This document shows, in pieces, positions 1-20,330 of a DNA stretch of 20,330 nt. Origin of the DNA: Oscillospiraceae bacterium (GTDB lineage: Bacteria > Bacillota_A > Clostridia > Oscillospirales > Oscillospiraceae); assembly GCA_021771675.1 (NCBI GenBank), contig JAETOP010000068.1:1-20330 (forward strand), given 5' to 3'. Made by a program: the position numbers and the translations under genes. Each line of letters opens with the position of its first letter. Position 1 is the first letter of the stretch. The notes under the pieces were generated by a model that ran no database searches, was not told where the DNA came from, and saw nothing but the letters and a program-made list of their open reading frames with translations.

Positions 1-167
1 TGGGACGCCGCTGCGCAGGTTTCGTCCGCGTCATCCCCGGCGCAGACAACCGGCGTCCCGGTGTCCGGGTCGCCCTCCGCCGCCAGCGCGGACACCGGCA
101 AAAGGCCGAGTATCAGCGTCAGCACCAGCAAAAGGCTGAACGCTCTTTTTTGTATGGTTGCCTTCAT
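1..167 (-). CDS. Secreted protein, N-terminal fragment (signal peptide)
   Basis: Only the first 55 codons are in the window; the gene continues past the left edge. Translation from the ATG at 165-167 begins MKATIQKRAF, followed by a hydrophobic stretch (SLLLVLTLILGLLPVSALAA). This is a classic Sec signal peptide with an Ala-x-Ala cleavage site near residue 30. The mature part starts acidic (EGDPDTGTP) and contains two cysteines. A strong ribosome site (AAGGAGG on the minus strand, about 178-184) fixes the start. It lies only 36 nt after the stop of the seven-zinc-ribbon gene with no hairpin between, so it probably belongs to the same transcript. The signal peptide style matches the SLH surface proteins elsewhere in the window, but the fragment is too short to name a family. 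Confidence 0.8.
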   Translation of the reverse strand, partial: MKATIQKRAFSLLLVLTLILGLLPVSALAAEGDPDTGTPVVCAGDDADETCAAAS

Positions 168-203
168 TAAGTTTTTCCTCCTTTTAATTTTGTAAGATGC
201 AGG

Positions 204-1838
204 TCATCCGTTGTTTTCTTCGGGCGGCCCCGTGCTGTGGGGCGTAAAATCAGGAGCACGCGCCACTGCTGTCCCGGCCGGAGTCTTTGCCTCCAGCTTC
301 GCCTCCTCCAGAATACCGTCATAGTATCTCCGCTTCGCCATGCTGACACGGCCCGAACACACGGGACAGCCGCTTTTCTGCACGCCCGCCCTGCGGGAAA
401 TGGGGGCTTTCCACACATGGCCCTCCTCACACAGCCACCATACCCGCTGCGCACTTCCGTAGGTGAACATCTCCGGCGTCAGCTTCCCGTTGAGGGTGGG
501 GTGCCACTGGGCGGCGATTTTGGGGTGGGTGGTCGCCAGATCGTTGAAGCCCGCCAGCACCCGCCTGTTCATGCAGTAAGGGCAGCCGCTGTTCTTCTGC
601 GTCCGATCCGAGATTTTGGCCGTCCACTCATGCCCCTTGGAGCAGCGCCACCAGACCCGCAGGTCGGTACCTGCGGACAGCGTTTCCGGCCTGCGTTTCC
701 CGTTCTTTTTCGGATGCCACTCCGCTGCAATCATGGGAAACAGTGCGGCAAGGCTGTTTTCCTCCGGGAGAATGACTCTGTTGGCACAGACTGGACAGCC
801 GCTGTGCTGAAGCGTCCGGGAGCTGATGACCGCCTCATAGGTATGTCCCCTGGGACACAGCCACCACGCCTTGGCGTGGCTCCCGGCGGTCACCTCCGTG
901 GCTTTCCGGCTGTTTTTCTCCGGGTGCCACTCCCCGGCAAGCTCGGGATGGGTCGTGGCAAGGTCGTTGAAGCCGGGCAGCAGCTTTTTGTTGGCGCAAT
1001 AGGGACATCCCGTTTTCCGCATGGTGCGGGCGCCCACCACCGCTTGATACGCATGGCCCTTTGGACAGCGCCACCAGACTTTTTTATTGCTCAAGGGCGT
1101 CACCAACTCCGGAGTAAGTGCGCCGTTTTTCGTGGGATGCCACTCGGCGGCAAGCTCCGGGTGGGCGGAGGCAAAATCATTGACGCCCGGGATCGCCAGC
1201 CTGCCGGCACAGACCGGACAGCCCACGCCGGCAGCCGTGCGGGAGGCGATGCTGGCCTGCCACGCATGGCCTTTCCCGCACAGCCACCAGACCTTTCGCT
1301 GTGCTCCGGCCGTCACCGCCCGGGGCGTCAAAGCACTGTTCTTGGACGGGTGCCATTGGCGGGCCAGCTCCGGGTGAGTGGTAGCCAAATCGTTTTCTCC
1401 GGGAACCAGAACACGGTTGGCACAGACGGGGCAGCCGGTGCCGCTTATGGCCCGGGATTTCACGATGGCCTTCCACTCATGGCCCTTGTCACAGACCCAC
1501 CATGCCATGTGGTGGCTGCCCAGAAGCACATCCGCCGGAGTCACCTTTCCATTTTTTGTCGGATGCCACTGTGCGGCGAGGTCGGGCCGCTGGGAGGCCA
1601 GGTCATTCTCGCCTGGCCATGCCCGCTTGCCGGCGCAGTAGGGGCAGCCGCTCCCAGTCGTCCTGGTGTAGACTGCGGCCTGCCATTCGTGGCCCTTTTC
1701 GCATTTCCACCAGACGCTCCGCTTGCTGCCGTAGGTGATCCCCTCCGGCGTCAGCGGGGCGTTTTTTGTTGGGTGCCACTCCCGAAGCAGTTCGGGCCTG
1801 TCATACTTTCGGCAGTGGTCATATAGAGTTGTTCTCAA
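204..1838 (-). CDS. Seven-repeat zinc-ribbon protein (DUF4379-like)
   Basis: The protein is 544 aa and consists almost wholly of seven tandem repeats of about 71 aa. Each repeat has the pattern (I/L)AxxWHPxKN - TP - WWxCxxGHxW - SR - GCPxCxxR - (N/D)DLAxxHPE. The four Cys/His ligands per repeat (C..GH and CPxC) match the family called probable zinc-ribbon domain, DUF4379 (PF14311). That family is common in phages and integrative elements and is often fused to a Vsr-like nuclease. No nuclease domain is visible here: after repeat 7 there are only about 50 residues of a charged, disordered tail. The start is a TTG at 1836-1838; an in-frame TGA three codons upstream excludes a longer start, and a GGGTGG-like ribosome site precedes it. 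It sits 30 nt after the upstream small zinc-ribbon gene, so the two are co-transcribed. Binding of nucleic acid is inferred from the fold; no substrate is known. Confidence 0.85.
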   Translation of the reverse strand: MRTTLYDHCRKYDRPELLREWHPTKNAPLTPEGITYGSKRSVWWKCEKGHEWQAAVYTRTTGSGCPYCAGKRAWPGENDLASQRPDLAAQWHPTKNGKVTPADVLLGSHHMAWWVCDKGHEWKAIVKSRAISGTGCPVCANRVLVPGENDLATTHPELARQWHPSKNSALTPRAVTAGAQRKVWWLCGKGHAWQASIASRTAAGVGCPVCAGRLAIPGVNDFASAHPELAAEWHPTKNGALTPELVTPLSNKKVWWRCPKGHAYQAVVGARTMRKTGCPYCANKKLLPGFNDLATTHPELAGEWHPEKNSRKATEVTAGSHAKAWWLCPRGHTYEAVISSRTLQHSGCPVCANRVILPEENSLAALFPMIAAEWHPKKNGKRRPETLSAGTDLRVWWRCSKGHEWTAKISDRTQKNSGCPYCMNRRVLAGFNDLATTHPKIAAQWHPTLNGKLTPEMFTYGSAQRVWWLCEEGHVWKAPISRRAGVQKSGCPVCSGRVSMAKRRYYDGILEEAKLEAKTPAGTAVARAPDFTPHSTGPPEENNG

Positions 1839-1868
1839 AATCCATCACCACCCTTCGCCGGGCCGCCG

Positions 1869-2222
1869 TCAGCGGGTAGTCAGGCCCGCAATCAGTGCGG
1901 ACTTGGCCTGCTCCGCCGTGGCTCTGGGCCGGTTATCCCCAGTGAGATATTTCAGCGCACCGTTCCAATCATGGAGGTCGGTATCCCTGGCTGGGAGATT
2001 CCTCACCTTCTCCGCCAGCTCTGCCCGCTGGATATGGTCTAAAAAGCGCAGGTCAGATAAGTAGTCGCAGCCCATTTGAATGGACATCAAATCCAGCAGA
2101 GACATCTTAACTGGCTTTCCTTTTTCTATGCCCTGCTCGCAGTCACGACATATCTGCCGGCCCTCTGACACCGGGGCACCGCAGCAGACGCAAATATCGT
2201 TGATGAGATAATACGGTTTCAT
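1869..2222 (-). CDS. Small zinc-ribbon protein, unknown function
   Basis: The protein is 117 aa. The N-terminus holds two Cys pairs (CVCCG and CRDC, residues about 12-28), the pattern of a zinc ribbon. The rest is predicted helical and charged, with no recognised enzyme motif. The start ATG at 2220-2222 has a modest AGGCGG ribosome site. Similar small proteins beginning PYYLINDICVCCG-like are familiar from clostridial accessory regions, but I know of no assigned function. It is the first gene after the candidate invertible promoter segment and reads into the seven-zinc-ribbon gene 30 nt later. Its expression would therefore depend on the orientation of that segment. Confidence 0.7.
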   Translation of the reverse strand: MKPYYLINDICVCCGAPVSEGRQICRDCEQGIEKGKPVKMSLLDLMSIQMGCDYLSDLRFLDHIQRAELAEKVRNLPARDTDLHDWNGALKYLTGDNRPRATAEQAKSALIAGLTTR

Positions 2223-2250
2223 TTCAATCGCCGCCTGTCCAAGAGTTCAT

Positions 2251-2266
2251 CACAAAATCAACATTT
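2251..2266 (+). repeat. Inverted repeat, left copy (site A)
   Basis: CACAAAATCAACATTT is the exact reverse complement of 2509-2524. It is embedded in a perfect palindrome, with 12-bp arms 2247-2258 and 2263-2274 around CAAC. That is the shape expected of a tyrosine-recombinase core site: two arms around a short crossover region, here probably ATCAACAT. Confidence 0.65.
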
Positions 2267-2304
2267 TGTGATGACCAGCGGAGGGCAAAGCCCCTGAATT
2301 GGGC

Positions 2305-2359
2305 CGAAAAATCCAAAAGGAAACGCCCGTCTCCTCTGTACCAAAGAGCGGACGGGCGT
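2305..2359 (-). terminator. Leftward terminator-like hairpin inside the invertible segment
   Basis: ACGCCCGTC (2351-2359, minus sense) pairs with 2323-2331, with an inner CTCT/AGAG stem. In the leftward transcript it is followed by TTCCTTTTGGATTTTTCG. It would end transcription coming from the recombinase gene before it reaches the zinc-ribbon operon. A second hairpin (GCCGCAAA 2370-2377 with 2388-2395) lies beside it and has no T-run. Confidence 0.5.
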
Positions 2360-2428
2360 GAAAAGGCATGCCGCAAAAAAATGAGTCTTTGCGGCTTGGA
2401 TTATTGCGCCCAAAAGCCAGAAAATACC

Positions 2429-2457
2429 TTGCACTTCAAAAGGGCGCATGATATAAT
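2429..2457 (+). promoter_or_regulatory. Strong extended -10 promoter inside the invertible segment
   Basis: TTGCAC (2429-2434), a 17-nt spacer and a perfect TATAAT (2452-2457) preceded by TG-A, the extended -10 pattern. As drawn it fires rightward from about 2464 into a GC hairpin (2528-2544) and then antisense to the recombinase. No rightward gene follows, so a promoter of this quality is unexplained unless the segment inverts. Confidence 0.6.
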
Positions 2458-2508
2458 TTCTTCATGATATGTAGCCGGGAAGCCCTGTTGCGGCGGTCTT
2501 TCAAGGCG

Positions 2509-2524
2509 AAATGTTGATTTTGTG
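2509..2524 (-). repeat. Inverted repeat, right copy (site B)
   Basis: AAATGTTGATTTTGTG pairs exactly with site A in inverted orientation. It is flanked by GGCGAA (2505-2510) and TTCGCC (2526-2531), a short dyad that could serve as recombinase arms. Confidence 0.65.
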
Positions 2525-2558
2525 CTTCGCCGGGATTCCCGGCGTTTGCGCTATTTCT

Positions 2559-2576
2559 GCGAAATGTTGAAATTGT
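2559..2576 (-). repeat. Third, partial copy of the recombinase-type site (site C)
   Basis: GCGAAATGTTGA at 2559-2570 repeats 2506-2517 exactly in the same orientation. Extended to 18 bp (GCGAAATGTTGAAATTGT) it differs from site B at two positions. It ends two bases before the recombinase stop codon. Between sites B and C lies a perfect hairpin (2528-2534 with 2538-2544, loop ATT). Confidence 0.5.
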
Positions 2577-2577
2577 C

Positions 2578-3420
2578 CTATGAGACAAGCCGCAGCTGTT
2601 CAAGCTGTCTGGTATGCTCGGCTCCGGTGGCCACAAGATAGATGCGGGTAGTTTCGATAGAGCTGTGGCCCAGCACATCGGCCAGTTGGGCGATGTCTTT
2701 GCAGGATTTATAAAAAATCCGGGCGAAGAGGTGTCGCAGATTGTGAGGATAGACCTTTTCCGGGGCCACGCCCGCCGTCCTGCAGATGGCTTTCATCTCC
2801 GCCCAAATCTGGCGGCGGCTCATGCTCTTTCCGCTTCTGGTGATGAATATCTCGCCGGAGGCGATTTTGTTTTTCCGGGCGTATTTCAGCAACTTGCGGC
2901 ACAGCTTATTGGTCAGCAGAATCACCCGGATCTTTCCTTTCAAGGAGATTTCCGCCCGCCCTCGCTGAGCCGCCTCCACAGTGAGATAGCGCACCTCGCT
3001 CACCCGTACACCGGTGGCGCAGACGGTTTCCATGAGCAGGGCAAGCCGTTCTTTCCCGCTGCCCTTGGCCGTGGACACCAGCAGGTCAAACTCCTCCCGC
3101 GTCAGCTCCCTGGATTGATCCCGGAACAGCCGCCGCTGCACCTTTAGAAATTTTACCCGGATGTCCCAACCCAAAAATCGGAACAGGCCGTTGAGGGCGG
3201 CCAGCATGGAATTGACGGTACTTGGGGCGTGGCCGGTGGAGAGAAGAACTCCTTTCCACTCCGCTGCCAGCTCCTGTGTCGCCGCCCTGCCGTCCAGCCA
3301 GGCGGCAAAGGCCCGCACATCCCGCAGGTACTTTTCAATGGTTCCGGGTGCGTGTTCCTCCCGGCGGAGATAGTGGCCGTAAGCCGTGATTTGCTCTGTG
3401 GTCAGTCTGTACTCATTCAT
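2578..3420 (-). CDS. Tyrosine recombinase / DNA invertase candidate
   Basis: The protein is 280 aa, the usual size for XerC/D-like phage integrase family members. It has an N-terminal SAM-like core-binding domain (residues about 5-85) and a C-terminal catalytic domain. Visible catalytic residues are R139 (ATGVRVSE), K161 or K163 (LKGK), H226 and R229 (HNLRH), H252 (LGHSS) and the nucleophile Y261 (TRIY). The set is complete, so the enzyme should be active. The start ATG at 3418-3420 follows a CGGAGG ribosome site. Its 3' end abuts the inverted-repeat segment at 2251-2576, typical of invertases that flip a nearby promoter. An alternative is that it is the integrase of a small element whose other genes have been lost. 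It lacks the N-terminal arm-binding extension usual in long ICE integrases. Confidence 0.85.
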   Translation of the reverse strand: MNEYRLTTEQITAYGHYLRREEHAPGTIEKYLRDVRAFAAWLDGRAATQELAAEWKGVLLSTGHAPSTVNSMLAALNGLFRFLGWDIRVKFLKVQRRLFRDQSRELTREEFDLLVSTAKGSGKERLALLMETVCATGVRVSEVRYLTVEAAQRGRAEISLKGKIRVILLTNKLCRKLLKYARKNKIASGEIFITRSGKSMSRRQIWAEMKAICRTAGVAPEKVYPHNLRHLFARIFYKSCKDIAQLADVLGHSSIETTRIYLVATGAEHTRQLEQLRLVS

Positions 3421-3582
3421 ATAAAGAGCCTCCGTTCTCCAAAGTATGAGGTTATTTTACCTTGGCAGAGGTTTTCTATAACGGCAAAGAAAATGCCCTT
3501 CGTCTTTTTTGTGGGGCGGTGCCATCGGCCGCAGCTTTGTTCCCTCCAGCCGGCCGCTTGCACGGGTATCGCCGGAAAAGGG
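3421..3582. other. Non-coding spacer upstream of the recombinase gene
   Basis: No gene is supported here. The first 60 bases must hold the recombinase promoter. A leftward TAAAAT lies around 3455-3460, but I see no convincing -35 partner. The remainder is GC-rich and unassigned. Confidence 0.4.
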
Positions 3583-3625
3583 CAAAGAAAAGTCCCGCAG
3601 AAGCCTTTTAGGCCTCTGCGGGACT
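3583..3625 (-). terminator. Terminator of the PIN toxin operon
   Basis: A perfect 11-bp stem (AGTCCCGCAGA at 3591-3601 with 3615-3625) has an inner GCC/GGC stem and is followed leftward by TTTTCTTT. It lies 61 nt after the PIN gene stop. Confidence 0.75.
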
Positions 3626-3686
3626 CATCCCTTTATCCAATGATAAGAAAAACATCCGATGGGCGTTTTCGTATTCTCGGCGTCTC

Positions 3687-4100
3687 TTATTTTGCGCTTA
3701 AAATGTCCAGAAACTCTTTCGCTGTGACGATGAACGGCCTCACCGGGAAGTGCTTCATGTTGCCGGTGACAAGGTATGCTTCATCGTCTCGCCTTTCGAC
3801 AACGACCTCATAAAATGGCAGATCTTTCATATCGGGGAGGATTTCGCCGGTTGGTGTTGGCTGGATCCGTTCACCATATTTTTTAATCGTATCAAGCAGG
3901 GCGCTGACAGCTTCTTCTGAAAAATGGAATTTTGCGCGTCGGAGCACTTCGCCGTACTCATGGAGGATTTCATCGCTATATAGTGCGATCACCTCGCCTG
4001 AAAAGAGCTTTCCGACCACAAGAACGGTGGCAGCGTCATCATGGCTGGACAGCAACGCAGACACAAGGACATTGGTGTCAATCACTGCATAGCAGATCAT
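3687..4100 (-). CDS. PIN-domain toxin, COG1569-like putative RNase
   Basis: The protein is 137 aa and is a single PIN domain. Acidic residues sit at the expected places: D8 in VIDTN, E44/E48 in DEILHEY, and D106 in DDEAYLVTGN. The final motif usually reads GD; here it is GN (N114), a small deviation. PIN toxins are Mg-dependent endoribonucleases that cut tRNA, rRNA or mRNA in the cytoplasm. The ATG directly follows the antitoxin stop codon (TAA-ATG), with GGAGGT as ribosome site, so the pair is translationally coupled. Pairing of a RelB/DinJ-like antitoxin with a PIN toxin of this type is known in clostridia. The RNA target cannot be read from the sequence. Confidence 0.85.
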   Translation of the reverse strand: MICYAVIDTNVLVSALLSSHDDAATVLVVGKLFSGEVIALYSDEILHEYGEVLRRAKFHFSEEAVSALLDTIKKYGERIQPTPTGEILPDMKDLPFYEVVVERRDDEAYLVTGNMKHFPVRPFIVTAKEFLDILSAK

Positions 4101-4394
4101 TTATGCACCTCCGCACCGTGTTTGCCGAATCTCCTCGTTAATTTCATCCAAGGTCAAATCCTGGACGCCATTCTGCTTCGCTTCAGCACGCAGAGCAAGA
4201 AACGCCTGCATCCCAGAGGCCCTTGTCACCTCTTTAGACGCTTCAATTTCAAAGGGGATCCGTCTTTCCCGCACAACAGCCCGCGCAAAAACATTGAAGG
4301 CCGTCGTGGCATTCATGCCAAAGTCGGCGCATAGCTGATCGAATTGACGCTTCAGCTCCTCGTCCATGCGGATACTAAAAGTAGCTTGTGCCAT
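4101..4394 (-). CDS. RelB/DinJ family antitoxin
   Basis: The protein is 97 aa. The N-terminal half (TFSIRMDEELKRQFD, then GMNATTAFNVFARAVV and RIPFEI) is the ribbon-helix-helix DNA-binding domain of the RelB/DinJ family (PF04221). The C-terminal half should wrap the toxin. A start seven codons upstream is possible, but the strong AAGGAGG at 4402-4409 lies inside that extension and is correctly spaced for the ATG at 4392-4394, so I chose the shorter form. It is coupled to the PIN toxin with zero spacing. It very probably represses its own promoter at 4418-4445. It resembles the second antitoxin in this window (9300-9581) over the dimerisation region. Confidence 0.87.
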   Translation of the reverse strand: MAQATFSIRMDEELKRQFDQLCADFGMNATTAFNVFARAVVRERRIPFEIEASKEVTRASGMQAFLALRAEAKQNGVQDLTLDEINEEIRQTRCGGA

Positions 4395-4417
4395 GTTCAG
4401 CACCTCCTTCATCATCC

Positions 4418-8594: not shown

Positions 8595-8732
<138 letters not shown>

Positions 8733-9034: not shown

Positions 9035-9307
9035 TTAAAATAAATCGCTGTGCGATCCCGTTCGAGTGAGATATAAAATCAGCTCACCCCCGTCCACTTC
9101 GTAGATCAGCAGCCAATCCGGGGTGATATGGCACTCACGACACCCTATATAATCCCCGGAAAGCGAGTGATCCCTGTTCTTCTCTGGCAACGATTCCCCC
9201 GCCGCCAGCTTTCTAATCACATCGGTCAGCAGGGAAATATCAAAGCCACGCCTTTTTATGCGTTTCAAGTCCTTTTGAAATTTTGTGGTTGGCCTTATGT
9301 TATACAT
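9035..9307 (-). CDS. yafQ: YafQ-type toxin (RelE superfamily mRNA interferase)
   Basis: The protein is 90 aa. The pattern RDHSLSGDYIGCRECHITPDWLLIYEVDGGEL...LYLTRTGSHSDLF is typical of YafQ. Residues equivalent to the E. coli active-site set are present: H47, H60, D64 and H86. Such toxins bind the ribosome and cut mRNA during translation. A TTG two codons upstream is possible, but GGAGGAG is too close to it; the ATG at 9305-9307 has better spacing. The start overlaps the antitoxin gene end by 8 nt, giving coupled translation. It forms a pair with the DinJ-like antitoxin. Confidence 0.9.
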   Translation of the reverse strand: MYNIRPTTKFQKDLKRIKRRGFDISLLTDVIRKLAAGESLPEKNRDHSLSGDYIGCRECHITPDWLLIYEVDGGELILYLTRTGSHSDLF

Positions 9308-9581
9308 CGGCAAGCAGCTCCTCCATCATCTGATCGACATTGGAATAGGTCTTGCCAAGGCTCGGATCGGCCTTCATTCTCTTTGCTTCCTGGATTGCTT
9401 CGACGGTTTCAGCGTTCGGTACATCGCCGCTGATTTCAAAGGGTATTCTGTATTCCCGTACCGCCTTACGCGCAAAAACATTGAAAGCCGTCGTCATCGT
9501 CATTCCCATATCAGCACAGAACGCCTCAAACTGTTCTTTCAAATCCGCATCCATACGAATGTTAATATTTATATTTGCCAT
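9300..9581 (-). CDS. dinJ: RelB/DinJ family antitoxin
   Basis: The protein is 93 aa. The ribbon-helix-helix domain (INIRMDADLKEQFEAF, MTTAFNVFARKAVREYRIPFEI) is followed by an acidic helical tail that should neutralise the toxin. The ATG at 9579-9581 has AAGGAG 9 nt upstream. It is the first gene of the pair with the YafQ toxin. The promoter at 9614-9642 contains an 8-bp dyad suited to autorepression. The core TTAFNVFAR...RIPFEI is nearly the same as in the antitoxin at 4101-4394, so cross-regulation is conceivable. Confidence 0.9.
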   Translation of the reverse strand: MANININIRMDADLKEQFEAFCADMGMTMTTAFNVFARKAVREYRIPFEISGDVPNAETVEAIQEAKRMKADPSLGKTYSNVDQMMEELLADV

Positions 9582-9831: not shown

Positions 9832-10980
9832 TTGGGAAATCGAGCAGGTTATTTCAAATCAAATCTGTCCGGTGATATGGCTTATCAATCATTTGTTCCG
9901 GCCCCGCTGCCGCCTGTACCGCCGGTTGATTTGGGAAGTGAGGGCTTAAATCTTTTAATACAGGCAAACCGGCAGCTTGCGCTTTTGGAGGGCCTTGCCG
10001 CCCGTATTCCCAACATGGACTTGTTTGTTTCCATGTATGTACGGAAAGAGGCGCTTCTGTCCTCGCAGATTGAAGGCACACAGGCAACCCTTGACGATGT
10101 GCTGGATCCGCTTCTGGACGAAAACGCAAACCGGAATGTGGCGGAGGTCATCAACTATATCAAAGCAAGTGAATTTGCCGTCAAGCGTCTTCAGGAGCTT
10201 CCGCTGTGCAACCGTTTGATAAAGGAAACCCATGCAGTGTTGATGGAGGGTGTCCGTGGGCAGGAAAAAAGCCCTGGTGAGTTCCGTTACTCTCAAAACT
10301 GGATCGGTGGCCAAGGCAGCACACTGAAAAATGCCAGATATATCCCCCCCAATCCGGAGGATATGAAAGAGGCTATCTCGGATTTGGAGAAATACATGAA
10401 TGCAGAGGATAGTCTGGATCCTCTGGTTCGTGCAGCGCTGATCCACTATCAGTTTGAAACCATCCATCCCTTTTTAGACGGAAATGGGCGTGTGGGGCGG
10501 CTCCTGATTACCCTGTTCCTGATGGAAAAGAAGATCCTGACGACTCCTGCACTCTATATCTCTTATTTTCTGAAGCGGAATCGGATTGAATACTACGACC
10601 GTATGACGGAAGTACGCCGAAAAGGGAACTATGAGCAGTGGATCACCTTCTTTTTGCAGGCGGTCATGGAATCGGCGGAGGATGCAGTCCACACAATCGA
10701 CCAACTGACAGCCCTGCATGATAAAAATATGGCGAGACTGTTAGACGGTGTGGCAAAACGGCAGGCCGATACGCTGAAAAAGCTGTTTGCCTATCTGGAG
10801 GCGAACCCAATCATTGAGGTGAAAAAGACCTCGCATGCTTTAGCTGTAGCCTACAATACAATCGCAAGAGCTGTGGCTGTTCTGGTGGAAAAAGGAATTC
10901 TGATTCAAAGTGAAAAAGCCGGGAAAACACGCATTTTCTCCTATTCTGAATATTTGGATATATTGAGAAAAGATACCTGA
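9832..10980 (+). CDS. Fic family protein (AMPylase-type) with winged-helix tail
   Basis: The protein is 382 aa. The Fic_N-like region contains the inhibitory helix motif SxxxEG (S77 to E81-G82), which marks a class II, self-inhibited Fic. The catalytic motif HPFLDGNGRVGR (212-223) is intact, with the catalytic His at 212. The enzyme family transfers AMP or related groups to protein hydroxyls. Residues about 312-375 (KKLFAYLEAN...SHALAVAYNTIARAVAVLVEKGIL) look like a winged helix, as in other Fic_N-Fic-wHTH proteins. I chose the TTG at 9832-9834 because AAAGGAG precedes it at proper spacing; an internal ATG at residue 16 has only a weak site. It is the only rightward gene here, with its own promoter and terminator and no visible antitoxin partner. 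The protein target is unknown. Confidence 0.9.
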   Translation: MGNRAGYFKSNLSGDMAYQSFVPAPLPPVPPVDLGSEGLNLLIQANRQLALLEGLAARIPNMDLFVSMYVRKEALLSSQIEGTQATLDDVLDPLLDENANRNVAEVINYIKASEFAVKRLQELPLCNRLIKETHAVLMEGVRGQEKSPGEFRYSQNWIGGQGSTLKNARYIPPNPEDMKEAISDLEKYMNAEDSLDPLVRAALIHYQFETIHPFLDGNGRVGRLLITLFLMEKKILTTPALYISYFLKRNRIEYYDRMTEVRRKGNYEQWITFFLQAVMESAEDAVHTIDQLTALHDKNMARLLDGVAKRQADTLKKLFAYLEANPIIEVKKTSHALAVAYNTIARAVAVLVEKGILIQSEKAGKTRIFSYSEYLDILRKDT

Positions 10981-12969: not shown

Positions 12970-13266
12970 TCATTTTGGCTCCTGTCCCCTTGACCGCTCT
13001 CCATCGGGCAATCCCTGCGCCCTTTTCCTGTCCAGCAGCCAAGTACCCGCCATGCAGAGCAAACCTGTCAGCGACAGGATAGCTATGGCGATCCAATAGT
13101 CAATGTGGGCAGGATCCCGCAGGTCTGGGATGCCCTGCGCCGTGAGCTGGGCCGCACGGTAGTTGGAGATGAGAAGTAGCACAGTTGCACATACCATCAG
13201 GAAAATGCAGAGGAATGTGATCCCCCACAATACATAGCCCAGCCACTTTCTCATGCTTTCCTTCAT
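12970..13266 (-). CDS. Two-helix membrane protein, sortase partner
   Basis: The protein is 98 aa with two predicted membrane helices (residues about 9-34 and 58-80), a short outside loop (YRAAQLTAQGIPDLRDPAHIDY) and a basic, polar C-terminus. No family is recognised. The start overlaps the sortase stop (ATGA), so the two are translated together. That arrangement suggests it works with the sortase at the membrane; no activity can be read from it. Confidence 0.7.
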   Translation of the reverse strand: MKESMRKWLGYVLWGITFLCIFLMVCATVLLLISNYRAAQLTAQGIPDLRDPAHIDYWIAIAILSLTGLLCMAGTWLLDRKRAQGLPDGERSRGQEPK

Positions 13267-13862
13267 AAAGCGTCTCTCCCTTCCTGTGAGTCTGCCTTTG
13301 GAAGTGCCTCAAAGCGCACCGTCAGTCGATCCTTGTCATCCTCCGTACAGGTAAAGAGGGTCAGCGGGTACTCGCCTGAAATCATCTCCCTCACCGCAGA
13401 GGGTGGCAGGACATAGGACTCCGCCACCACAAATTGCCATACCTGCCCATCCACCCCGGTGAAAACCAGCTCTGCGCCGGGGGAGAGTTCCTTCAAATGA
13501 CCGAAGAAGCCGGGATAGTTGTGGGCACCGAGCACCATGTTCTCTGCGGCGATGGAGCCATAGTACCGGCAGGGAGAGATCTTCAGCTTTTCATCGGTCA
13601 GATCGGCCATGACCGGCAGTTCCCGGTCAATCTCCGGGATGGAGAGATACCCGATATAGTCATAGCCGTCTATTTCCACAGTCGGCATATCCGAGGCGAC
13701 CGAGTTTACATTTCCCGCTTGGATCTGCGCCTTCAGTTCCGTCAGAGTCTTGGATGCCGTGAGGGCTGCCCGCCATGGCTGGGAGAGTCTGAACAGACAT
13801 ACCGCCAGCACCGCAATGCACGCCATCTGGCACAACATTAGCAGCCTTCGTTTCAGCATCAT
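13263..13862 (-). CDS. Sortase family transpeptidase
   Basis: The protein is 199 aa. One N-terminal membrane helix (residues about 6-26) is followed by the sortase beta-barrel: DYIGYLSIPEIDRELPVM, then H114 (GAHNYPG), C172 in LTLFTC and R179 in DKDRLTVRFE. These are the His, Cys and Arg of the sortase active site. The length and motif spacing suit the smaller class A/D-type enzymes; I do not assign a class. Sortases join surface proteins to peptidoglycan or to pilin partners outside the membrane. The gene lies 67 nt after the giant SLH protein gene, separated by a 13-bp hairpin. Neither that protein nor the 925-aa one ends in a visible LPxTG-type signal, so the substrate lies elsewhere. The ATG is at 13860-13862 with GGGAG upstream. 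Confidence 0.85.
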   Translation of the reverse strand: MMLKRRLLMLCQMACIAVLAVCLFRLSQPWRAALTASKTLTELKAQIQAGNVNSVASDMPTVEIDGYDYIGYLSIPEIDRELPVMADLTDEKLKISPCRYYGSIAAENMVLGAHNYPGFFGHLKELSPGAELVFTGVDGQVWQFVVAESYVLPPSAVREMISGEYPLTLFTCTEDDKDRLTVRFEALPKADSQEGRDAL

Positions 13863-13929: not shown

Positions 13930-16900
13930 TTATGCGTAAGCCCGATAGAGGAAGGTCACAATCTGGGCGCGGGTGCAGGAAGCATCCGGGCTGAAGGTGC
14001 TGGCGCTGGTGCCAGCTGTGACGCTCTCGGCCACGGCCCACTTCACAGCGTCGGCGTAATAGGCGCTGTCAGCCACATCCACGAAGGGGTTCGTCCCGCT
14101 GGTCGTGGTTCCGACGGCCCGGAACAGGAAGGTCACAATCTGTCCGCGGGTGCAGGTGGTGTCCGGGCTGAAGGTGGTGGCGCTGGTGCCTACGGTGATC
14201 CCCTGCTCCACGGCCCACAGTACAGCGTTATAGTAGTAGGCGCTGGCGGGGACATCGGTAAAGGGATTGACGCTGCTCTTGGGTGCCGGGGAACCGGCGG
14301 CCCGCCACAGGAAGGTCACGGCCTGGGCCCGGGTGCAGGCGGTGTCCGGGCTGAAGGTGGTGGCGCTGGTGCCGGAGGTAACGCCGTTCTCCACGGCCCA
14401 CGCCACCGCATCATAGTAATAGGTGCCGGTGGAAACATCGACAAAGGCAACCTCGGGCTGCTCCCCAATCTTAGCGAAGCTGGCTTCCACCGTGACCTTG
14501 GAGGTGGGCATGGTGAAGGTGTACTGGGTGTCGCTCTTTTTTGTGAGCTTGACCGCACTGCCGTTCTTGTCGGTGACGGTCAGATCGTCCAGCTCGTAGC
14601 CGGAGTCTGGCTTTACGGTGATGGTCACAGTCGTACCCTTGCTGGCGTTCTTGGGTGAGACGGAAACAGAACCGTTCTTGGTGCTGTCCACGGTCACAGC
14701 GTAGGTGGTCGTCCCGCCGCCGCCACCGCCGGAACGGTTGGAAATGGTCAGGGTGCCGTCCACATAGGTAATGGTGTAGTTCTCCCCAGCATTTGCTCCG
14801 CTGGCCTTGATGGTGTAGTTTCCAACCGTATTCGTGTCCGTGGCGGAGCAGGTCAGCGTGGGTACCGTGGTCAGATTGTCGCCTTTTTTGAGCCCGCTCA
14901 CCATATAGGTGAATTCCGGCAGCGTGCCGCCCACATAGACGGACTTGTCATCCGCTGTGATGGTCAGCGGGGCGGGCGAAATGCTGATGACTGCCGAACC
15001 CGTCACAGAATGTTCGCCGGACTCGACCTTCCAGTAGACAACCGTAGTCCCCGCATTCTTGACCTCGACCTTCGCATCGGACAAGGTATTTGCCTCGGTG
15101 CCGTAGGTCACGGTCGCTCCCTCGGGCGCATTCACTGTGATGCTGTGATTTTCCGCGTCGTATACGCCGGTGTACCCTTCTGCGGTCACATCGAGCCCAG
15201 ACACATTCACGGAATAGCTCGCCTCGGCAGTGCCGGAGTAGTTCCCCGTGAAAGAAATTGTGAATTTGTGGTTGGTCATGTCCTGCGTCACGGTGTAATC
15301 CGTGTCCTTGACGAGCACAGTGCCGTTATAAACCACCTGGATGTCGGCCTTCGCCGCCGCCTCGTCAGACACATAGCTGCTGTTCACGCCGGTGATGGTC
15401 ACGCTTTCAGATGTGAGGGCCAAAGCGGATACCGTCAGGTTCTCGCTGGTGAAGAAATCCTGCCCGTCATAGGCAAGCGTGATCGTGCCGGAGCCCGCCT
15501 TCGTGTAGGATACGGCCCCAGTGCCGCTCAATTCCGCAATATCCGACGCCAGGGTGAGGCCGTCCGGCAGTGTGGCGGAGCACAGAGTTTTGCTGTCCCC
15601 GAAGGTCCCGCCGTCCAGAGCGGTGGTGTCCAGGGTGTTGACGCCCGCTACTGCCTCAATATCAGTCGTCTTGACTGCCCAGTTCGTCCCAGTCAGGGTC
15701 ATCTGGTCGGGAGTTCCGGTCAACGCACCTTTTTTGAGATAGGTGTCATTCGAGGTATGCCCGGTGCGGGTTGCGGATACAGTCGTGAACGCCATGCAGT
15801 CCTTTACGGTCAGGGCGCCCGTGCATTTTCCGGCGAGGCCGCCGGCGTTTGCCGCATAGTTCCTCGTGGAGTCGTTGCTGGCGGAGACCGTTCCAACGGC
15901 CACGCAGTTCTCCACGGAGCCGCTCATCTCGCCGGCGATGCCGCCTGCGGCGCTTTCCTCACCAAAGACGGGGAGGGAGCTGTCGTACTTGAGCTCCGCC
16001 TTGATATTGCCCTTTGCGGTGCAGTTCGATACTGCGGAGGCCGTCAGGCTGCCGCCGACGCCGCCCGCCATGGCAAATTTGGGCGCCGTCACGGAGATGT
16101 CGCCCGTGTACTGGCAGTTCGTCACGGATGCACCGGTCTGGGAGCCGATCAGGCCGCCAGCATAGAGGTAGCCGCCGGTGGCGTTCTGCACCTTGGTGCT
16201 ATGCGTCGCCGTGACAGACACCGTGGAGCTGCAGTCAGAGACGGTCGCACCGTTACCACAAGCTACCGCAGGCCCGATATAGAGATTTTCACCGTTTGTT
16301 GTCGCCGTTGTGAGGGCAACGCTGCCGGCGAAGCTGACATTGGACACCTCGGTGCCGTCGGAATACCCCACGAGCCCGATGTACTGCGGCTGATTGTCTT
16401 TCCATTCAGAACTGTTGATATTAAAGGTCACGGTATTGCTCTGGCCGTCGATCTTGCCGGAGAAAGGCGTCACTGCAGTTCCCAGACCGATAGCCGTGTC
16501 CCCAGTCAATGTCAGGTCTGCGGCCAGCTTCACATAGGCCTTTGACAGGGCGACCGCTTTTGTGGTTGCGTCTGCGCCGCTCATGCGCCCGCCCAGCACT
16601 GCGGCCTGGGCCGTCTCATCGTCGGCAATGGCCTTGACCAGATTTTCATAGTCCGTCAGGGAGCGGATGACATACGCATCGCTCCAGCTCTGGTAGGGCA
16701 GGGCGTCGTCTGCGACATTCCCATTGTGGGTCAGATCGGCATACAGCGTCGCCCCATCTGCGCTGAACAGGTCGGCGGACTTCACGCCGGCAGCGTTGAC
16801 CACATAGAGGGAGGTGTTGAAGTAGTTCCCGGCGTCGGAGGTCACGGGAACCTTCAGAGCCCCGTCTGCCACGCTGGCGGAATTGTCACTCAGCTTCCAG

Positions 16901-19900
16901 CCCTCGGCATCCGTTGCCGTCATTACATGGGAGCAGTTCGTGAAGTTCGCCTTGCCCCAGACGGTGCCGCCGGACAAAATCATGCCCGCTGCGCCGCCGT
17001 GTGCGGCGGTTACGCTGCCGGAGTTCTCACAGCCACTGAAAGTCAGGACACTGGATTCAATCGACCTTCCGACGATGCCGCCAGCGTTGTTGTTGCTTTG
17101 AGCGGTGGCGCTCACTGTGCCGCTGTTTTTGCAGTTTGTGAAGGACGCAGTAGTCGCACCCACATATCCCACAATGCCGCCTGCCGGGGCGGAATGGCTC
17201 TCCAGTTCAGTCTGGCGGGTCGCTGTGATCGCCCCGGTGTTCTCGCAGTCTTCAAAGGTCGCGGTAGTAGATGAGACCGTGCTCACGATACCGCCTGCCA
17301 GTGCGTTGCCCTGGGAGAGGGTGGTGCTGTTGTCCAAAAGGGTGAGGGCGGCGCCCGCTGTAATGGCTCCGGTGTTCTTGCAGTTCTTGACCGTCAGGGA
17401 GGCGCCACCGCTCTGTCCGATGAGGCCGCCCGCGGGGGAGGTGTTGAAGGTCGCGCCCACGGTCAGGCTTGCGCTGTTTTCACAGTTCTCGACGGTGACA
17501 TCGCCTGCTGTTACGCCGATCAGCACGCCGCAGGAATTGCTTTTCATCGCAAGGGTGACCGAGCCTGCGGTTTTCACATTCTGGATGGTCGCGCTTGTGT
17601 TGGTATAGCCCGCTTTGTTAAACAGGCCGCCCGACACGATGACATAAGTATCGTCGTTCGGCTGGACCTTGCCGTTAAAGAGGTCGTTCTCCACATTCGG
17701 GTCAGTGGAGACGGATATGGTCTTGCTGGTGTCGATGTCCAGGGTGATGGTGTGATTGTCGCCATCGAATGTGCCGTTGAAGGTGTAGTCCCAGCGGTTC
17801 GCCCAGGTACCACTGCCCGTCTTGTAGTAGATCTGCTCGAAGCCGATGCCATAGAAGCCATCCTCGGTTTTGAGCGTCACATCGCTGACCAGCTTATAAT
17901 GGCTGCTCAGCAGGGCTTTCACTGTATTTGCGTCTGTGGCCGTCTTTCCGAACAGGGCAAACTCCTCTGCCGTGCCGATGCCGGCGGAGATATGGGACAG
18001 AGCGATGAAGTTCGCCGCGGACTTCAGCTCATAGGGAGAGCTCTCCGTTCCTTCGCCCTTGATCTCGCTGACCCAGCGGGCGGTCAGGGTGGTGTCGCTA
18101 ATGTAGTTCCACTTGCTCAAGCCTTTGCCATCTGAGCCAGTGATCTTTGTCTCGCCCAGATACCAGCCGTCGAAATCATAGTTGGCCTTGGTGGGGACGG
18201 CGAAGGTGTAGTCGCTGCTGCCATAGGTCACGGTGGTCGAGGTAGACCCCAGCGTTCCGCCATTGGCATTCAGCGTCACATTGACGGAGACATTCTTTTC
18301 CGCCAGCGACTCCTTGAGCTCCGCCAGCGTCTTACCCTCATTCACACTCTTGTCCACATAATACTGGAGGGTTTCGGACAGGCCGTTGTAGGTCTGCTCA
18401 TAGGTTTTCAGGCTGTTGATCTGGGTGTTGAGGTCGTCGCCGGTCTTGTCCAGATCCACGGCGTTCAGGCTGGTGATCAGCGTGTCTGCCGAAGATTTTC
18501 CATCTGTGTCCGCCGTCACCAGGAGGGCATTATTGTCGGTGTCCTTCAGCTCATCGTAATACCCTTCGGGGAGGATCAGGCAGGTCGTTTCCCCGGAGAC
18601 CAGCTTGCCCGGCGTGTAGCTCTCGCCGTTGCGGGTCAGGCTTGTCACGCTCTGGGAATCGGCAACCAGCGCCAGCGCATCGCCGAACTCGGTCTGCAGC
18701 GCCCAGTTTGCGAAAGCCGTCTTGGCCTCGGAGCCGGCGTTCAGACCCTGCCCGATGCCGGTGGTCACGGTGCTATTGCCGATGGTGTAAGAGCTGCCGG
18801 CCCCGTCGCCTGTACCGGGGAAGTCGCTTCCGTTCGTTGCGGTCACGGTCCCCCCAGTGATGGTGATGACGCCCATGGCCGCGCCGTTTGCCCACGCGGT
18901 CTTGGTCGTATCCGTGGACAAGGCGCCGATGCTGCCGCTCCCGATGCCGGGGGCGTACTGGCCGCCGGTCGCATTGACGGTACCGCCGGAAATGGTGATA
19001 GTGCCGCTCCCGCCGCCGCTGTAATCACTGATACCTGCGGGTGTATCCATACCGCCGCCGCCGATACCGGCCCCGTAGATGCCGCCCGTTGCGGTGACGG
19101 TGCCGCCGGAGATGGTGATTACGCCGCCGTTGTTGTCTTTGCTGTGATATTTGCCGCCGCCGTCACCGATGCCGGCTCCATATTTCTGCTTCGCGGTTGC
19201 GGTGACGGTTCCGCCAGTGATGGTGATGACATCGCCGGATTGGTAATCGCCGCCGCCGATGCCGGCAGAGCAACCCTCGGCAGTGACGGTGCCGCCGCTG
19301 ATGAGGATGGTTTTCGCACCGTTGAAGCCGTAGACCTTTCCGATGCCCGCACTGCCATGTGCGCTGCCCACATCGGCTTTCCCAGACTTTGCGGTGACAG
19401 TGCCGCCCGAAATGGTGATGTTCGAGGCGTTGGAGCCGCCGCCGATGCCGGGGCCGCCGTAGGAGGTGCCTTTGTCGCCGGTTGCGGTGATGGTGCCGCC
19501 CGAAATGGTGATGTCTCCGGCGGTGTAGTAAGCCTTATGCTCGCCATTCGGCCTACCGCCGCCGTTTGCACCGATGCCCGCTCCGCCGCCGACATTGTAT
19601 GCACCAGAAATTTCCCCTCCAGCGGTAGCGGTGAGAGAACCACTGCCCATAATGGTCAGCGAGGCATCCTGCTTGACCCAAAGGCCGGCAAAGCTGACAT
19701 CTTTCCCATAATTTTCGGAATCATCATACACACCGGATTTCAGCGTGTTCTCGGTGTCCTCGGCCAGCGTCAGCGTGACCTTGCCGCCGGTGATGGCGAA
19801 GGCGCAGGCCGTTTCCAGCGTGGCCTGTCTGCTCACATCAATATTCACACCGTTCAAAGTGATGTTGTGCGTGCCGCCCGTCACAGTGATGGTGTTGGTT

Positions 19901-20330
19901 GTACTGCTTGTGGCGTCCCCATCATCACTATTAGCACTGGCACTGGCCTGCGAGATGACATACTCACCCGTGTAGGCGGTCTCTTCTGTCGCATCCCCCT
20001 GCTTATAGCCGGTGGCCGTGATGACGATGGAGCCGTCGGCAAGATCGAGCTTGTCGTCACTCTCTTCATTCAGCGGCATGATCTGCCGGGTGAAGAACGC
20101 CGCCGCTTCCTCCAGCGCGGACATATCCAGCGCCTCGGCCTCATCGACGGTCAGCTTGTCGATGGCGTCATAGATGGCGCCGACCTCCGCATAGACCTCG
20201 GCCTGCTCCTCCTTGTCCATCTTCTCCAGCGTGTCCGCGTCGAGCAGCGCGTCAATGCGCTCCTGCAGGGCCGATACAGCGGAGTCAGCCGGGATGGACT
20301 CTTCCGCTTCCTCCGCAGGCTCCTTCGGAG
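13930..20330 (-). CDS. Giant secreted beta-repeat surface protein with C-terminal SLH triad (5' end missing)
   Basis: At least 2132 aa; the frame stays open to the right edge, so the start and signal peptide lie outside. The in-frame ATG at 20220 is internal. In order: an acidic helical segment; a Gly-rich array of about ten repeats of the type ITISGGTVTATGG..GAGIGGG (about 20000-18780), as in carbohydrate-binding beta-helix proteins; a Listeria-Bacteroides (InlB B-type) repeat (NANGGTLGS...YDFDGWYLG, about 18280-18060); long GLUG-like repeats (NCENSASL, GGIVG, NCKNTG; about 17600-15750); Ig-like stretches; an MBG-like domain (LTITADDKSVYVGGTLPEF, about 14985-14740); a further InlB-like repeat; and three SLH domains (about 14460-13933). 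This is an adhesin-like surface protein held to the wall polymer by its SLH triad. No catalytic motif was seen. Confidence 0.9.
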   Translation of the reverse strand, partial: PKEPAEEAEESIPADSAVSALQERIDALLDADTLEKMDKEEQAEVYAEVGAIYDAIDKLTVDEAEALDMSALEEAAAFFTRQIMPLNEESDDKLDLADGSIVITATGYKQGDATEETAYTGEYVISQASASANSDDGDATSSTTNTITVTGGTHNITLNGVNIDVSRQATLETACAFAITGGKVTLTLAEDTENTLKSGVYDDSENYGKDVSFAGLWVKQDASLTIMGSGSLTATAGGEISGAYNVGGGAGIGANGGGRPNGEHKAYYTAGDITISGGTITATGDKGTSYGGPGIGGGSNASNITISGGTVTAKSGKADVGSAHGSAGIGKVYGFNGAKTILISGGTVTAEGCSAGIGGGDYQSGDVITITGGTVTATAKQKYGAGIGDGGGKYHSKDNNGGVITISGGTVTATGGIYGAGIGGGGMDTPAGISDYSGGGSGTITISGGTVNATGGQYAPGIGSGSIGALSTDTTKTAWANGAAMGVITITGGTVTATNGSDFPGTGDGAGSSYTIGNSTVTTGIGQGLNAGSEAKTAFANWALQTEFGDALALVADSQSVTSLTRNGESYTPGKLVSGETTCLILPEGYYDELKDTDNNALLVTADTDGKSSADTLITSLNAVDLDKTGDDLNTQINSLKTYEQTYNGLSETLQYYVDKSVNEGKTLAELKESLAEKNVSVNVTLNANGGTLGSTSTTVTYGSSDYTFAVPTKANYDFDGWYLGETKITGSDGKGLSKWNYISDTTLTARWVSEIKGEGTESSPYELKSAANFIALSHISAGIGTAEEFALFGKTATDANTVKALLSSHYKLVSDVTLKTEDGFYGIGFEQIYYKTGSGTWANRWDYTFNGTFDGDNHTITLDIDTSKTISVSTDPNVENDLFNGKVQPNDDTYVIVSGGLFNKAGYTNTSATIQNVKTAGSVTLAMKSNSCGVLIGVTAGDVTVENCENSASLTVGATFNTSPAGGLIGQSGGASLTVKNCKNTGAITAGAALTLLDNSTTLSQGNALAGGIVSTVSSTTATFEDCENTGAITATRQTELESHSAPAGGIVGYVGATTASFTNCKNSGTVSATAQSNNNAGGIVGRSIESSVLTFSGCENSGSVTAAHGGAAGMILSGGTVWGKANFTNCSHVMTATDAEGWKLSDNSASVADGALKVPVTSDAGNYFNTSLYVVNAAGVKSADLFSADGATLYADLTHNGNVADDALPYQSWSDAYVIRSLTDYENLVKAIADDETAQAAVLGGRMSGADATTKAVALSKAYVKLAADLTLTGDTAIGLGTAVTPFSGKIDGQSNTVTFNINSSEWKDNQPQYIGLVGYSDGTEVSNVSFAGSVALTTATTNGENLYIGPAVACGNGATVSDCSSTVSVTATHSTKVQNATGGYLYAGGLIGSQTGASVTNCQYTGDISVTAPKFAMAGGVGGSLTASAVSNCTAKGNIKAELKYDSSLPVFGEESAAGGIAGEMSGSVENCVAVGTVSASNDSTRNYAANAGGLAGKCTGALTVKDCMAFTTVSATRTGHTSNDTYLKKGALTGTPDQMTLTGTNWAVKTTDIEAVAGVNTLDTTALDGGTFGDSKTLCSATLPDGLTLASDIAELSGTGAVSYTKAGSGTITLAYDGQDFFTSENLTVSALALTSESVTITGVNSSYVSDEAAAKADIQVVYNGTVLVKDTDYTVTQDMTNHKFTISFTGNYSGTAEASYSVNVSGLDVTAEGYTGVYDAENHSITVNAPEGATVTYGTEANTLSDAKVEVKNAGTTVVYWKVESGEHSVTGSAVISISPAPLTITADDKSVYVGGTLPEFTYMVSGLKKGDNLTTVPTLTCSATDTNTVGNYTIKASGANAGENYTITYVDGTLTISNRSGGGGGGTTTYAVTVDSTKNGSVSVSPKNASKGTTVTITVKPDSGYELDDLTVTDKNGSAVKLTKKSDTQYTFTMPTSKVTVEASFAKIGEQPEVAFVDVSTGTYYYDAVAWAVENGVTSGTSATTFSPDTACTRAQAVTFLWRAAGSPAPKSSVNPFTDVPASAYYYNAVLWAVEQGITVGTSATTFSPDTTCTRGQIVTFLFRAVGTTTSGTNPFVDVADSAYYADAVKWAVAESVTAGTSASTFSPDASCTRAQIVTFLYRAYA

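What the first reader, a model, noticed from the sequence alone, without database searches (positions are those of the whole stretch)
2251..2524. Candidate invertible promoter (phase switch) beside its own tyrosine recombinase
A perfect 16-bp inverted repeat encloses 242 bp that carry a strong extended -10 promoter pointing right and a terminator-like hairpin pointing left. A complete tyrosine recombinase gene ends about 50 bp away. As drawn, the promoter reads into no gene and the hairpin blocks leftward transcription, which fits an OFF state. Inversion would place the promoter about 90 nt before the small zinc-ribbon gene. Invertible promoters with adjacent recombinases are known in gut bacteria; one that controls a zinc-ribbon/secreted-protein operon is not known to me.
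Basis: partly seen in the sequence, partly recalled or inferred. Interest (0 to 1): 0.82.

Follow-up and report, generated by a model that had tools for sequence, protein, structure and literature searches.

The report
Flip-flop DNA switch for surface genes
A bacterium, probably from the gut, carries a short stretch of DNA with a start signal for gene reading that a neighbouring enzyme can probably flip over, turning genes for zinc-finger and surface proteins on or off; dozens of relatives carry the same switch, found in both positions.

Summary
The perfect 16-bp inverted repeat is the core of two 20-bp quasi-palindromic recombinase sites, A 2251-2270 and B 2505-2524. A third site, C (2558-2577), was missed; it starts right after the recombinase stop codon.

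This is one member of a large family. Of 71 loci with enough sequence (70 relatives plus the window), 62 have the same layout: recombinase, site, about 230 bp, inverted site. The 6-nt spacer differs between loci but matches within a locus, as strand exchange requires. The enclosed promoter, at a fixed position, points at the recombinase (OFF) in 48 loci and away (ON) in 12. Homologous segments occur inverted between loci. A terminator often opposes the promoter. The window is OFF.

Downstream there is usually a large, apparently secreted protein. In 30 of 62 loci a DUF4379 zinc-finger gene, a small zinc-ribbon gene or a catalytically dead recombinase gene lies near the start; the window has the first two. 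A 2025 paper reports read-proven Clostridia invertons that are probably this family. Inversion of the window's own locus, and any feedback role of these genes, remain untested.

The parts
2251..2270 (+). Recombination site A: CACAAAA-TCAACA-TTTTGTG, near-perfect palindrome with 6-nt spacer
   Evidence: spacer identical to B and C
2505..2524 (-). Recombination site B: CACAAAA-TCAACA-TTTCGCC, inverted relative to A; A x B inverts about 254 bp
2558..2577 (-). Third site C: GACAATT-TCAACA-TTTCGCA, same direction as B, directly after the recombinase stop codon; corresponds in position to site 1 of the relatives. A x C would invert about 307 bp, B x C would delete 53 bp (inference)
2271..2504 (.). 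Interior of the invertible segment (234 bp)
2429..2457 (+). Extended -10 promoter TTGCAC-17-TGA-TATAAT; points at the 3' end of the recombinase gene in the drawn (OFF) orientation
2323..2358 (-). Intrinsic-terminator-like hairpin reading left, away from the promoter; in OFF it lies between recombinase and operon
   Evidence: -21.1 kcal/mol; counterparts at -12 or below in 46 of 60 segments against 1 of 60 shuffles
2370..2395 (-). Central hairpin GCCGCAAA...TTTGCGGC; similar hairpins seen at this place in several relatives
2578..3420 (-). Tyrosine recombinase, 280 aa, PF02899 + PF00589, R-K-H-R-H-Y all present; presumed invertase
1869..2222 (-). 117-aa small protein with N-terminal zinc-ribbon motif; first gene of the switched operon
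   Evidence: (PF18912 below cut-off)
204..1838 (-). 544-aa protein with seven DUF4379 treble-clef zinc fingers (PF14311); second gene
3..167 (-). First 55 codons of a gene with a signal-peptide-like N-terminus (judged by eye), cut by the window's end; presumed start of a large surface protein
   Evidence: sequence; no Pfam match to this piece; pattern in relatives

Best explanation
A phase switch. The recombinase encoded at 2578-3420 binds 20-bp sites made of two inverted 7-bp arms around a 6-nt overlap (TCAACA here) and exchanges strands between oppositely oriented sites A and B (or A and C), flipping a ~254 bp (or ~307 bp) segment. The segment holds one extended -10 promoter and an opposed terminator. 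In the drawn orientation the promoter reads into the back of the recombinase gene and the terminator keeps leftward read-through out of the operon: OFF. Flipped, the promoter lies about 90 nt before the operon: small zinc-ribbon gene, seven-finger DUF4379 gene, then a secreted (probably surface) protein. Shown by sequence: sites, spacer rule, recurring promoter and terminator, both orientations across the family, intact catalytic residues. Inferred: that this locus inverts in cells, that transcription follows the promoter, that the three genes are one transcript, and that OFF is stabilised by antisense transcription into the recombinase gene.
For: Sites and chance. Recombinase with all catalytic residues, as in all 80 first recombinases checked (79 relatives and the window; L037 could not be translated without a stop). 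Family: 232 relatives found, best 80 kept. Of 71 loci (70 relatives plus the window) with at least 330 bp after the gene, 57 had both arms above threshold; 53 of these 57 have identical 6-nt spacers, 33 distinct spacers, permutation mean 2.9 and maximum 11 in 10,000. Counting also loci with weaker arms and five site pairs set by hand, 62 of 71. Promoter: score at least 10 in 46 of 60 segments against 2.9% of shuffles; -10 to site distance 45-48 bp in 43 of 60. Orientation 48 OFF, 12 ON, 2 unclear. Inverted homology: L047/L050 84% over 220 bp on opposite strands; L007/L009, two loci of one MAG, 72% over 170 bp inverted while about 1 kb of downstream flank is 80% identical in the same direction. 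Opposed terminator. A large ORF starts within 2.2 kb downstream in 47 of 62; of 51 loci with a large ORF, 42 have a signal-peptide-like start. Published read-proven inversion in what is probably the same family.
Against: No reads and no second assembly of this locus: the window's own inversion is unseen (no whole genome held). 9 of 71 loci show no spacer-matched pair. The -35 is poor and the strict scan finds no promoter. Homology strand disagreed with the promoter call in 6 of 55 segment pairs, one of them the window against L064; all six are hits of 40-59 bp across the palindromic central hairpin. The best-matching relative, L037, has a recombinase that does not translate as one open frame, so some switches may be locked. 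A terminator-like hairpin at -12 or below also lies on the promoter's own strand in 21 of 60 segments. Inverton group 139 was matched on size, class and enzyme type only; its IR motif is in a supplement I could not read.
Confidence: 0.92

Rival explanations
1. A locked switch: sites and recombinase descend from a working inverton, but this copy no longer flips, or flips only through an enzyme elsewhere.
For: The window shows one state only; assembled loci are mostly OFF (48 of 62; 17 of 20); the recombinase of L037 does not translate as one open frame.
Against: The window's recombinase is full-length with all catalytic residues, and all three sites keep the same spacer.
Confidence: 0.06
2. The recombinase is the integrase of a mobile element and the repeats are attachment or excision sites, not an inversion switch.
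For: Pfam and PHROGs name the protein integrase-like; sites B and C are direct repeats and could recombine by deletion; relatives occur on 21 plasmid records, 20 of them under 60% identity.
Against: The nearest sites are inverted and enclose 234 bp without an ORF over 80 aa; the same layout recurs with different genes downstream; only 1 viral contig and 3 phage records (all under 60% identity) hold relatives.
Confidence: 0.01
3. The repeat is a regulator operator or terminator and lies beside a recombinase by chance.
For: Site A is itself nearly palindromic and could be a hairpin.
Against: 0 of 300 shuffles hold such a repeat; spacer matching in 53 of 57 loci; both promoter orientations at fixed geometry.
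Confidence: 0.005

Closest known systems
Inverton group 139 with invertase group 35 in hCom2 gut strains (PMC11892184; passages, and sections 6 and 8 read)
   Same: Tyrosine recombinase next to a short inverton; 32 of 33 in Clostridia; inversion shown by reads, e.g. Intestinimonas butyriciproducens DSM 26588, outer length 255 bp, and Clostridium sp. D5, 257 bp (from the coordinates printed); ours mostly 245-320 bp
   Different: The IR motif could not be compared (supplement not available). In what I read I saw no spacer matching, no terminator opposed to the promoter (only a general remark that some motifs may mark termination), no DUF4379 or zinc proteins (0 hits for zinc and DUF in the main text) and no dead recombinases; S-layer homology occurs 0 times. 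The paper does note, for group 145, recombinase genes placed so that an inverton could regulate them
fimS with FimB/FimE of Escherichia coli (search listing with starts of abstracts)
   Same: Promoter on a ~314 bp segment inverted by tyrosine recombinases, surface structure downstream
   Different: Recombinase only distantly related (NF007370/NF007371 DNA-invertase models, 31 and 28 bits against cut-offs of 221 and 222). FimE is an active second recombinase; the operon genes here are zinc-finger proteins, or in relatives catalytically dead recombinases
Clostridioides difficile RecV switches such as the flagellar switch (search listing with starts of abstracts)
   Same: Clostridial promoter-region inversion by a tyrosine recombinase; Rho takes part in flagellar switch control
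   Different: That RecV acts on several distant loci is recalled; here each switch has its own adjacent recombinase and an intrinsic-type terminator inside the segment
PsrA tyrosine invertase of streptococci (one search hit; search listing)
   Same: Small tyrosine recombinase that inverts DNA between inverted repeats
   Different: About 35% identity; rearranges hsdS genes, not a promoter

Membership tests
Invertible promoter worked by a tyrosine recombinase | Inverted recombination sites enclosing a promoter | tested here: met
   (sequence only; promoter activity not measured)
Invertible promoter worked by a tyrosine recombinase | Identical overlap region in the two sites | tested here: met
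   TCAACA in A, B and C; family 53 of 57
Invertible promoter worked by a tyrosine recombinase | Recombinase with intact catalytic residues | tested here: met
   R-K-H-R-H-Y in the window protein
Invertible promoter worked by a tyrosine recombinase | Both orientations exist | tested here: inconclusive
   Met across the family; not testable for the window's own locus
Invertible promoter worked by a tyrosine recombinase | Inversion changes transcription | not testable with these tools
   No RNA or read data
Inverton group 139 / invertase group 35 (PMC11892184) | IR motif of the group | not testable with these tools
   Motif is in supplementary files; none could be read
Inverton group 139 / invertase group 35 (PMC11892184) | Adjacent tyrosine recombinase, Clostridia, outer length about 255 bp | tested here: inconclusive
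   Recombinase and size fit (window A-B outer length 274 bp); the window's taxon is only inferred from relatives
FimB/FimE-type DNA invertase | Passes the NCBI tyrosine-type DNA invertase cut-offs | tested here: not met
   31 and 28 bits against 221 and 222
XerC/XerD housekeeping recombinase | Passes the equivalog cut-offs | tested here: not met
   XerD 117 of 329.6 bits, XerC 101 of 335 bits
Mobile-element integrase | Sites in direct orientation at the two ends of an element | tested here: not met
   A and B are inverted and 254 bp apart; the only direct pair, B and C, encloses no gene

The most novel reading that the evidence does not exclude
The first gene or genes behind these switches are orientation-dependent feedback regulators of the switch itself. 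Made only in ON, a catalytically dead recombinase (in many relatives) or a multi-finger DUF4379/zinc-ribbon pair (in the window) would bind the switch or join the active recombinase and lock or bias the orientation, giving the phase switch a memory. Opposing this, OFF would be held by the promoter's antisense transcription into the recombinase gene.
Probability: 0.27. Interest if true: 0.85.

Novelty: new member of a known kind. Interest (0 to 1): 0.6.

Why it matters
It gives a sequence-level rule for recognising this class of switch in Clostridia: arms like GACAAAA/TTTTGTC, a matched 6-nt spacer, a promoter at a fixed place and, often, an opposed terminator. One chromosome-sized contig (G241) carries seven such switches with seven different spacers, six OFF and one unclear in the assembly, so a repertoire of hidden surface proteins can be predicted and tested by read mapping. 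The conserved dead recombinases and zinc-finger genes at the head of many switched operons raise a testable question: do phase switches carry their own memory or locking factors?

Tried and rejected
Own genome for paralogous copies: none held. Viral contigs and phages as a source of strain-level pairs in both orientations: 1 contig and 3 weak records, not useful. Locating the published Intestinimonas inverton by coordinates: the genus search reached two genomes, and no place matched. Avoidance of shared spacers within a genome: two genomes repeat a spacer (CANAZG loci L073 and L078, TTAATA; G161, TCAATA), all seven differ in G241. Because about 3.6% of between-locus comparisons share a spacer, this is about what chance gives, so I do not claim avoidance. 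A defence-system reading: no PADLOC match for the three proteins. A known RNA at 1-4000: no Rfam match at gathering scores. A recent tandem duplication as origin of sites B and C: compared by eye, the stretches after each differ, so not supported.

Rows left out of counts: 71 of 81 loci (80 relatives plus the window) had at least 330 bp after the gene; 14 of the 71 fell under the arm threshold and were not in the 57. The four of the 57 without matched spacers were L012, L041, L066 and L071; three of them have a matched pair elsewhere. In one search the site pair was set by hand for five loci (L012, L028, L041, L071 and the window); nine loci remained without a matched pair (L014, L020, L042, L043, L053, L061, L066, L070, L080). 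In some searches the two loci of unclear orientation were left out; one search looked only at the 170 nt upstream of or around the promoter's start in each segment. The orientation call takes the better strand, so the shuffle control is also best of two strands; the shuffles keep base composition only. In some searches spacer identity was part of the search rule or score, so those counts do not test the spacer rule; one search gives the false-positive rate. Loci that lie on the minus strand were first searched the wrong way round and redone. Searches covered 22 loci; one gave a pair with identical spacers when read the right way, the other seven did not, two of them for lack of sequence.

Full report
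What is there. The window holds, on the minus strand, a tyrosine recombinase (3420-2578), then about 350 bp without a credible gene, then a 117-aa zinc-ribbon gene (2222-1869), a 544-aa gene with seven DUF4379 treble-clef fingers (1838-204) and the start of a gene with a signal-peptide-like N-terminus (167, cut by the window's end). The gaps between these three genes are 30 and 36 bp. A scan found no promoter-like site in 1-2300 on either strand, and three terminator-like sites (one in the genes' direction) against 2.6 in shuffles, so one operon is likely but not shown.

The repeat. 2251-2266 and 2509-2524 form a perfect 16-bp inverted repeat; 0 of 300 dinucleotide shuffles hold one at comparable spacing. 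Searching the core with up to 3 mismatches gave four places, 0.44 expected: the two arms, a third at 2562-2576 with 2 mismatches and one distant match with 3. Written as recombinase sites, the three are A CACAAAA-TCAACA-TTTTGTG (2251-2270), B CACAAAA-TCAACA-TTTCGCC (2505-2524, minus) and C GACAATT-TCAACA-TTTCGCA (2558-2577, minus). B and C point the same way, so A could invert with either, and B with C would delete 53 bp. Two other loci show a 53-bp offset: L028 with three sites 53 bp apart and L255 with its first site 53 bp after the stop codon.

Family. A genome scan with the recombinase found 232 relatives, of which the best 80 were kept; their titles name Bacillota, many of them Oscillospiraceae. 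Of 71 loci (70 relatives plus the window) with at least 330 bp after the gene, 57 had two sites by arm score alone. In 53 of the 57 the 6-nt spacers were identical; between loci the mean was 2.8 of 6; 33 distinct spacers occurred; shuffling partners gave at most 11 matches in 10,000 trials. With weaker arms admitted and five pairs set by hand, 62 of 71 have a matched pair. A spacer free to vary between loci but matched within a locus is expected of a tyrosine-recombinase overlap region (established knowledge of Cre/Xer-type recombination, recalled).

Promoter and orientation. In each segment the best promoter was scored on both strands. 48 point at the recombinase, 12 away, 2 are unclear; the window points at it. 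Scores of at least 10 occur in 46 of 60 segments against 2.9% of shuffles; 54 of 60 have the extended TG, 57 a TTG at -35, and the distance from the -10 to the site is 45-48 bp in 43 of 60. Because the geometry is the same in both classes, whole segments appear to be turned, not just promoters. Direct comparison agrees: L047 and L050 share 84% over 220 bp on opposite strands; L007 and L009, from one MAG, share 170 bp at 72% inverted while their downstream flank is 80% identical over 997 bp in the same direction. Over all segment pairs with hits, homology strand and promoter call agree in 49 of 55; the six disagreements (one is the window against L064) are hits of 40-59 bp that all cross the palindromic central hairpin, which matches either way round. 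Short agreeing hits may owe their agreement to the same hairpin, so the long pairs carry the weight.

Terminator. On the strand opposite the promoter, in the first 170 nt of the segment, a hairpin with a T-rich tail at -12 kcal/mol or below occurs in 46 of 60 segments, on the promoter strand in 21, in composition shuffles in 1. In the window it is -21.1 opposite and none on the promoter strand. In OFF it lies between the recombinase and the operon, so OFF is insulated. In OFF the promoter reads across sites B and C into the recombinase gene from behind. That this antisense transcription stabilises OFF is inference.

Second sample. The genus of L037 holds 86 genomes; 34 have the recombinase, at 75 places. 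I fetched 20 of the 75, from four genomes rich in copies. All 20 have a spacer-matched pair: 17 OFF, 1 ON, 2 unclear. The same search rule fires in 0 of 400 shuffles and at 0 of 57 places further downstream. G241, one 3.58-Mb contig, has seven switches with seven different spacers.

What is switched. Downstream on the same strand, a large ORF (450 aa or more, DUF4379 excluded) starts within 2.2 kb in 47 of 62 loci. Of the 51 loci with such an ORF at any distance held, 42 have a signal-peptide-like start by a crude pattern and 14 match a single S-layer-homology query; some are not surface proteins (L017's is a fused recombinase-like protein). In L008, L017, L068, L073 and L078 the next genes look like polysaccharide genes (nucleotidyl- or glycosyltransferases, an exporter), judged from recall on reading, so the cargo is not only secreted protein. 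On a named plasmid, Pusillibacter faecalis pMM59_01, the gene annotated after the recombinase is an S-layer homology domain protein and a switch lies between. In 30 of 62 loci one of three gene types lies within 2.5 kb: DUF4379 (13), the 117-aa type (6), or a second recombinase-like gene (15, counting an 81-aa piece in L013 and a split frame in L004).

Dead recombinases. These second genes keep the two-domain tyrosine recombinase fold: PF02899 reaches its cut-off in four of five scanned and PF00589 in two of five; the AlphaFold model (mean pLDDT 83.9, pTM 0.54) matches XerA, XerD and lambda integrase (the XerA superpositions are poor overall, rmsd about 16 A, lambda integrase 5-6 A). They lack the catalytic set: the HxxR histidine is Arg in all nine seeds and the tyrosine is missing; of the 120 listed of 1182 database relatives, none has all six residues, none has that histidine and all lack the tyrosine (the other 1062 were not examined). 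They evolve under constraint, dN/dS 0.06 in one pair and 0.39-0.53 in three pairs of one trio. In 150 genomes of the family of L002's genome, 12 such genes were taken (E below 1e-60; weaker hits were taken for active relatives and not each checked); 9 of the 11 with upstream sequence follow an active recombinase, two do not. Of 19 DUF4379 genes, 17 have upstream sequence; 11 of these follow an active recombinase, 10 of them with a detected switch, and 6 do not. Strict site detection failed for four of the eight dead-recombinase loci in which the dead gene directly follows a recombinase; a relaxed search found a repeat in two of these four. So the link is strong but not absolute. The window itself has no dead recombinase.

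Known or new. A 2025 survey of a defined gut community reports inverton group 139, 33 invertons, 32 of them in Clostridia, tied to tyrosine recombinase invertase group 35, with changing orientation ratios by reads, including an Intestinimonas inverton of 255 bp outer length (PMC11892184; passages, and sections 6 and 8 read). Size, class and enzyme type fit; the motif could not be compared. The searches for DUF4379, S-layer homology with inverton terms (30 of 165 listed), catalytically inactive tyrosine recombinase with phase variation and these genera with invertons listed no paper whose title or shown abstract describes DUF4379 or dead recombinases behind such switches; the library holds only open papers, and I did not read those papers. 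I therefore call the switch a new member of a known kind and keep the feedback idea as a separate, unproven case.

Noticed in passing
Relative loci, e.g. L005:7122-7973, L019:7120-7968, L031:7128-7979, L073:7143-8030: A conserved clade of tyrosine-recombinase-like proteins without the catalytic residues, ending in an LLEQEQLxVGW-like motif, encoded directly behind the switch, often ahead of a large secreted protein
   Followed up: yes
8691-8732: 10.5 perfect copies of CCTG, about 330 bp upstream of the start of the 925-aa S-layer-homology gene (8361-5584, minus): a possible slipped-strand contingency repeat
   Followed up: no
2525-2557: The 33 bp between sites B and C hold a strong GC hairpin (CGCCGGG/CCCGGCG) that the rightward OFF transcript would cross; might weaken antisense transcription of the recombinase
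   Followed up: no
L037:6001-6833: The best-matching relative's recombinase (83% identity in the best segment) does not translate as one open frame, yet its switch is kept; perhaps a locked switch
   Followed up: partly
L028, 3-362 bp after the recombinase; L255, +53/+304: Extra or displaced proximal sites at 53-bp offsets, as in the window
   Followed up: partly
L008, L017, L068, L073, L078 downstream of the switch: Genes that look like polysaccharide synthesis or export follow the dead recombinase, suggesting some switches control surface sugars
   Followed up: no
3687-4415 and 9035-9581: Two toxin-antitoxin-like pairs: PIN domain with RelB, and RelE with RelB/DinJ
   Followed up: no
9832-10980: Fic-domain gene (PF13784 + PF02661)
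   Followed up: no
13930-20220 and 13263-13862: Very large surface-protein-like gene with 177-bp repeats at its 3' end, next to a gene resembling sortases (below NCBIfam cut-offs)
   Followed up: no
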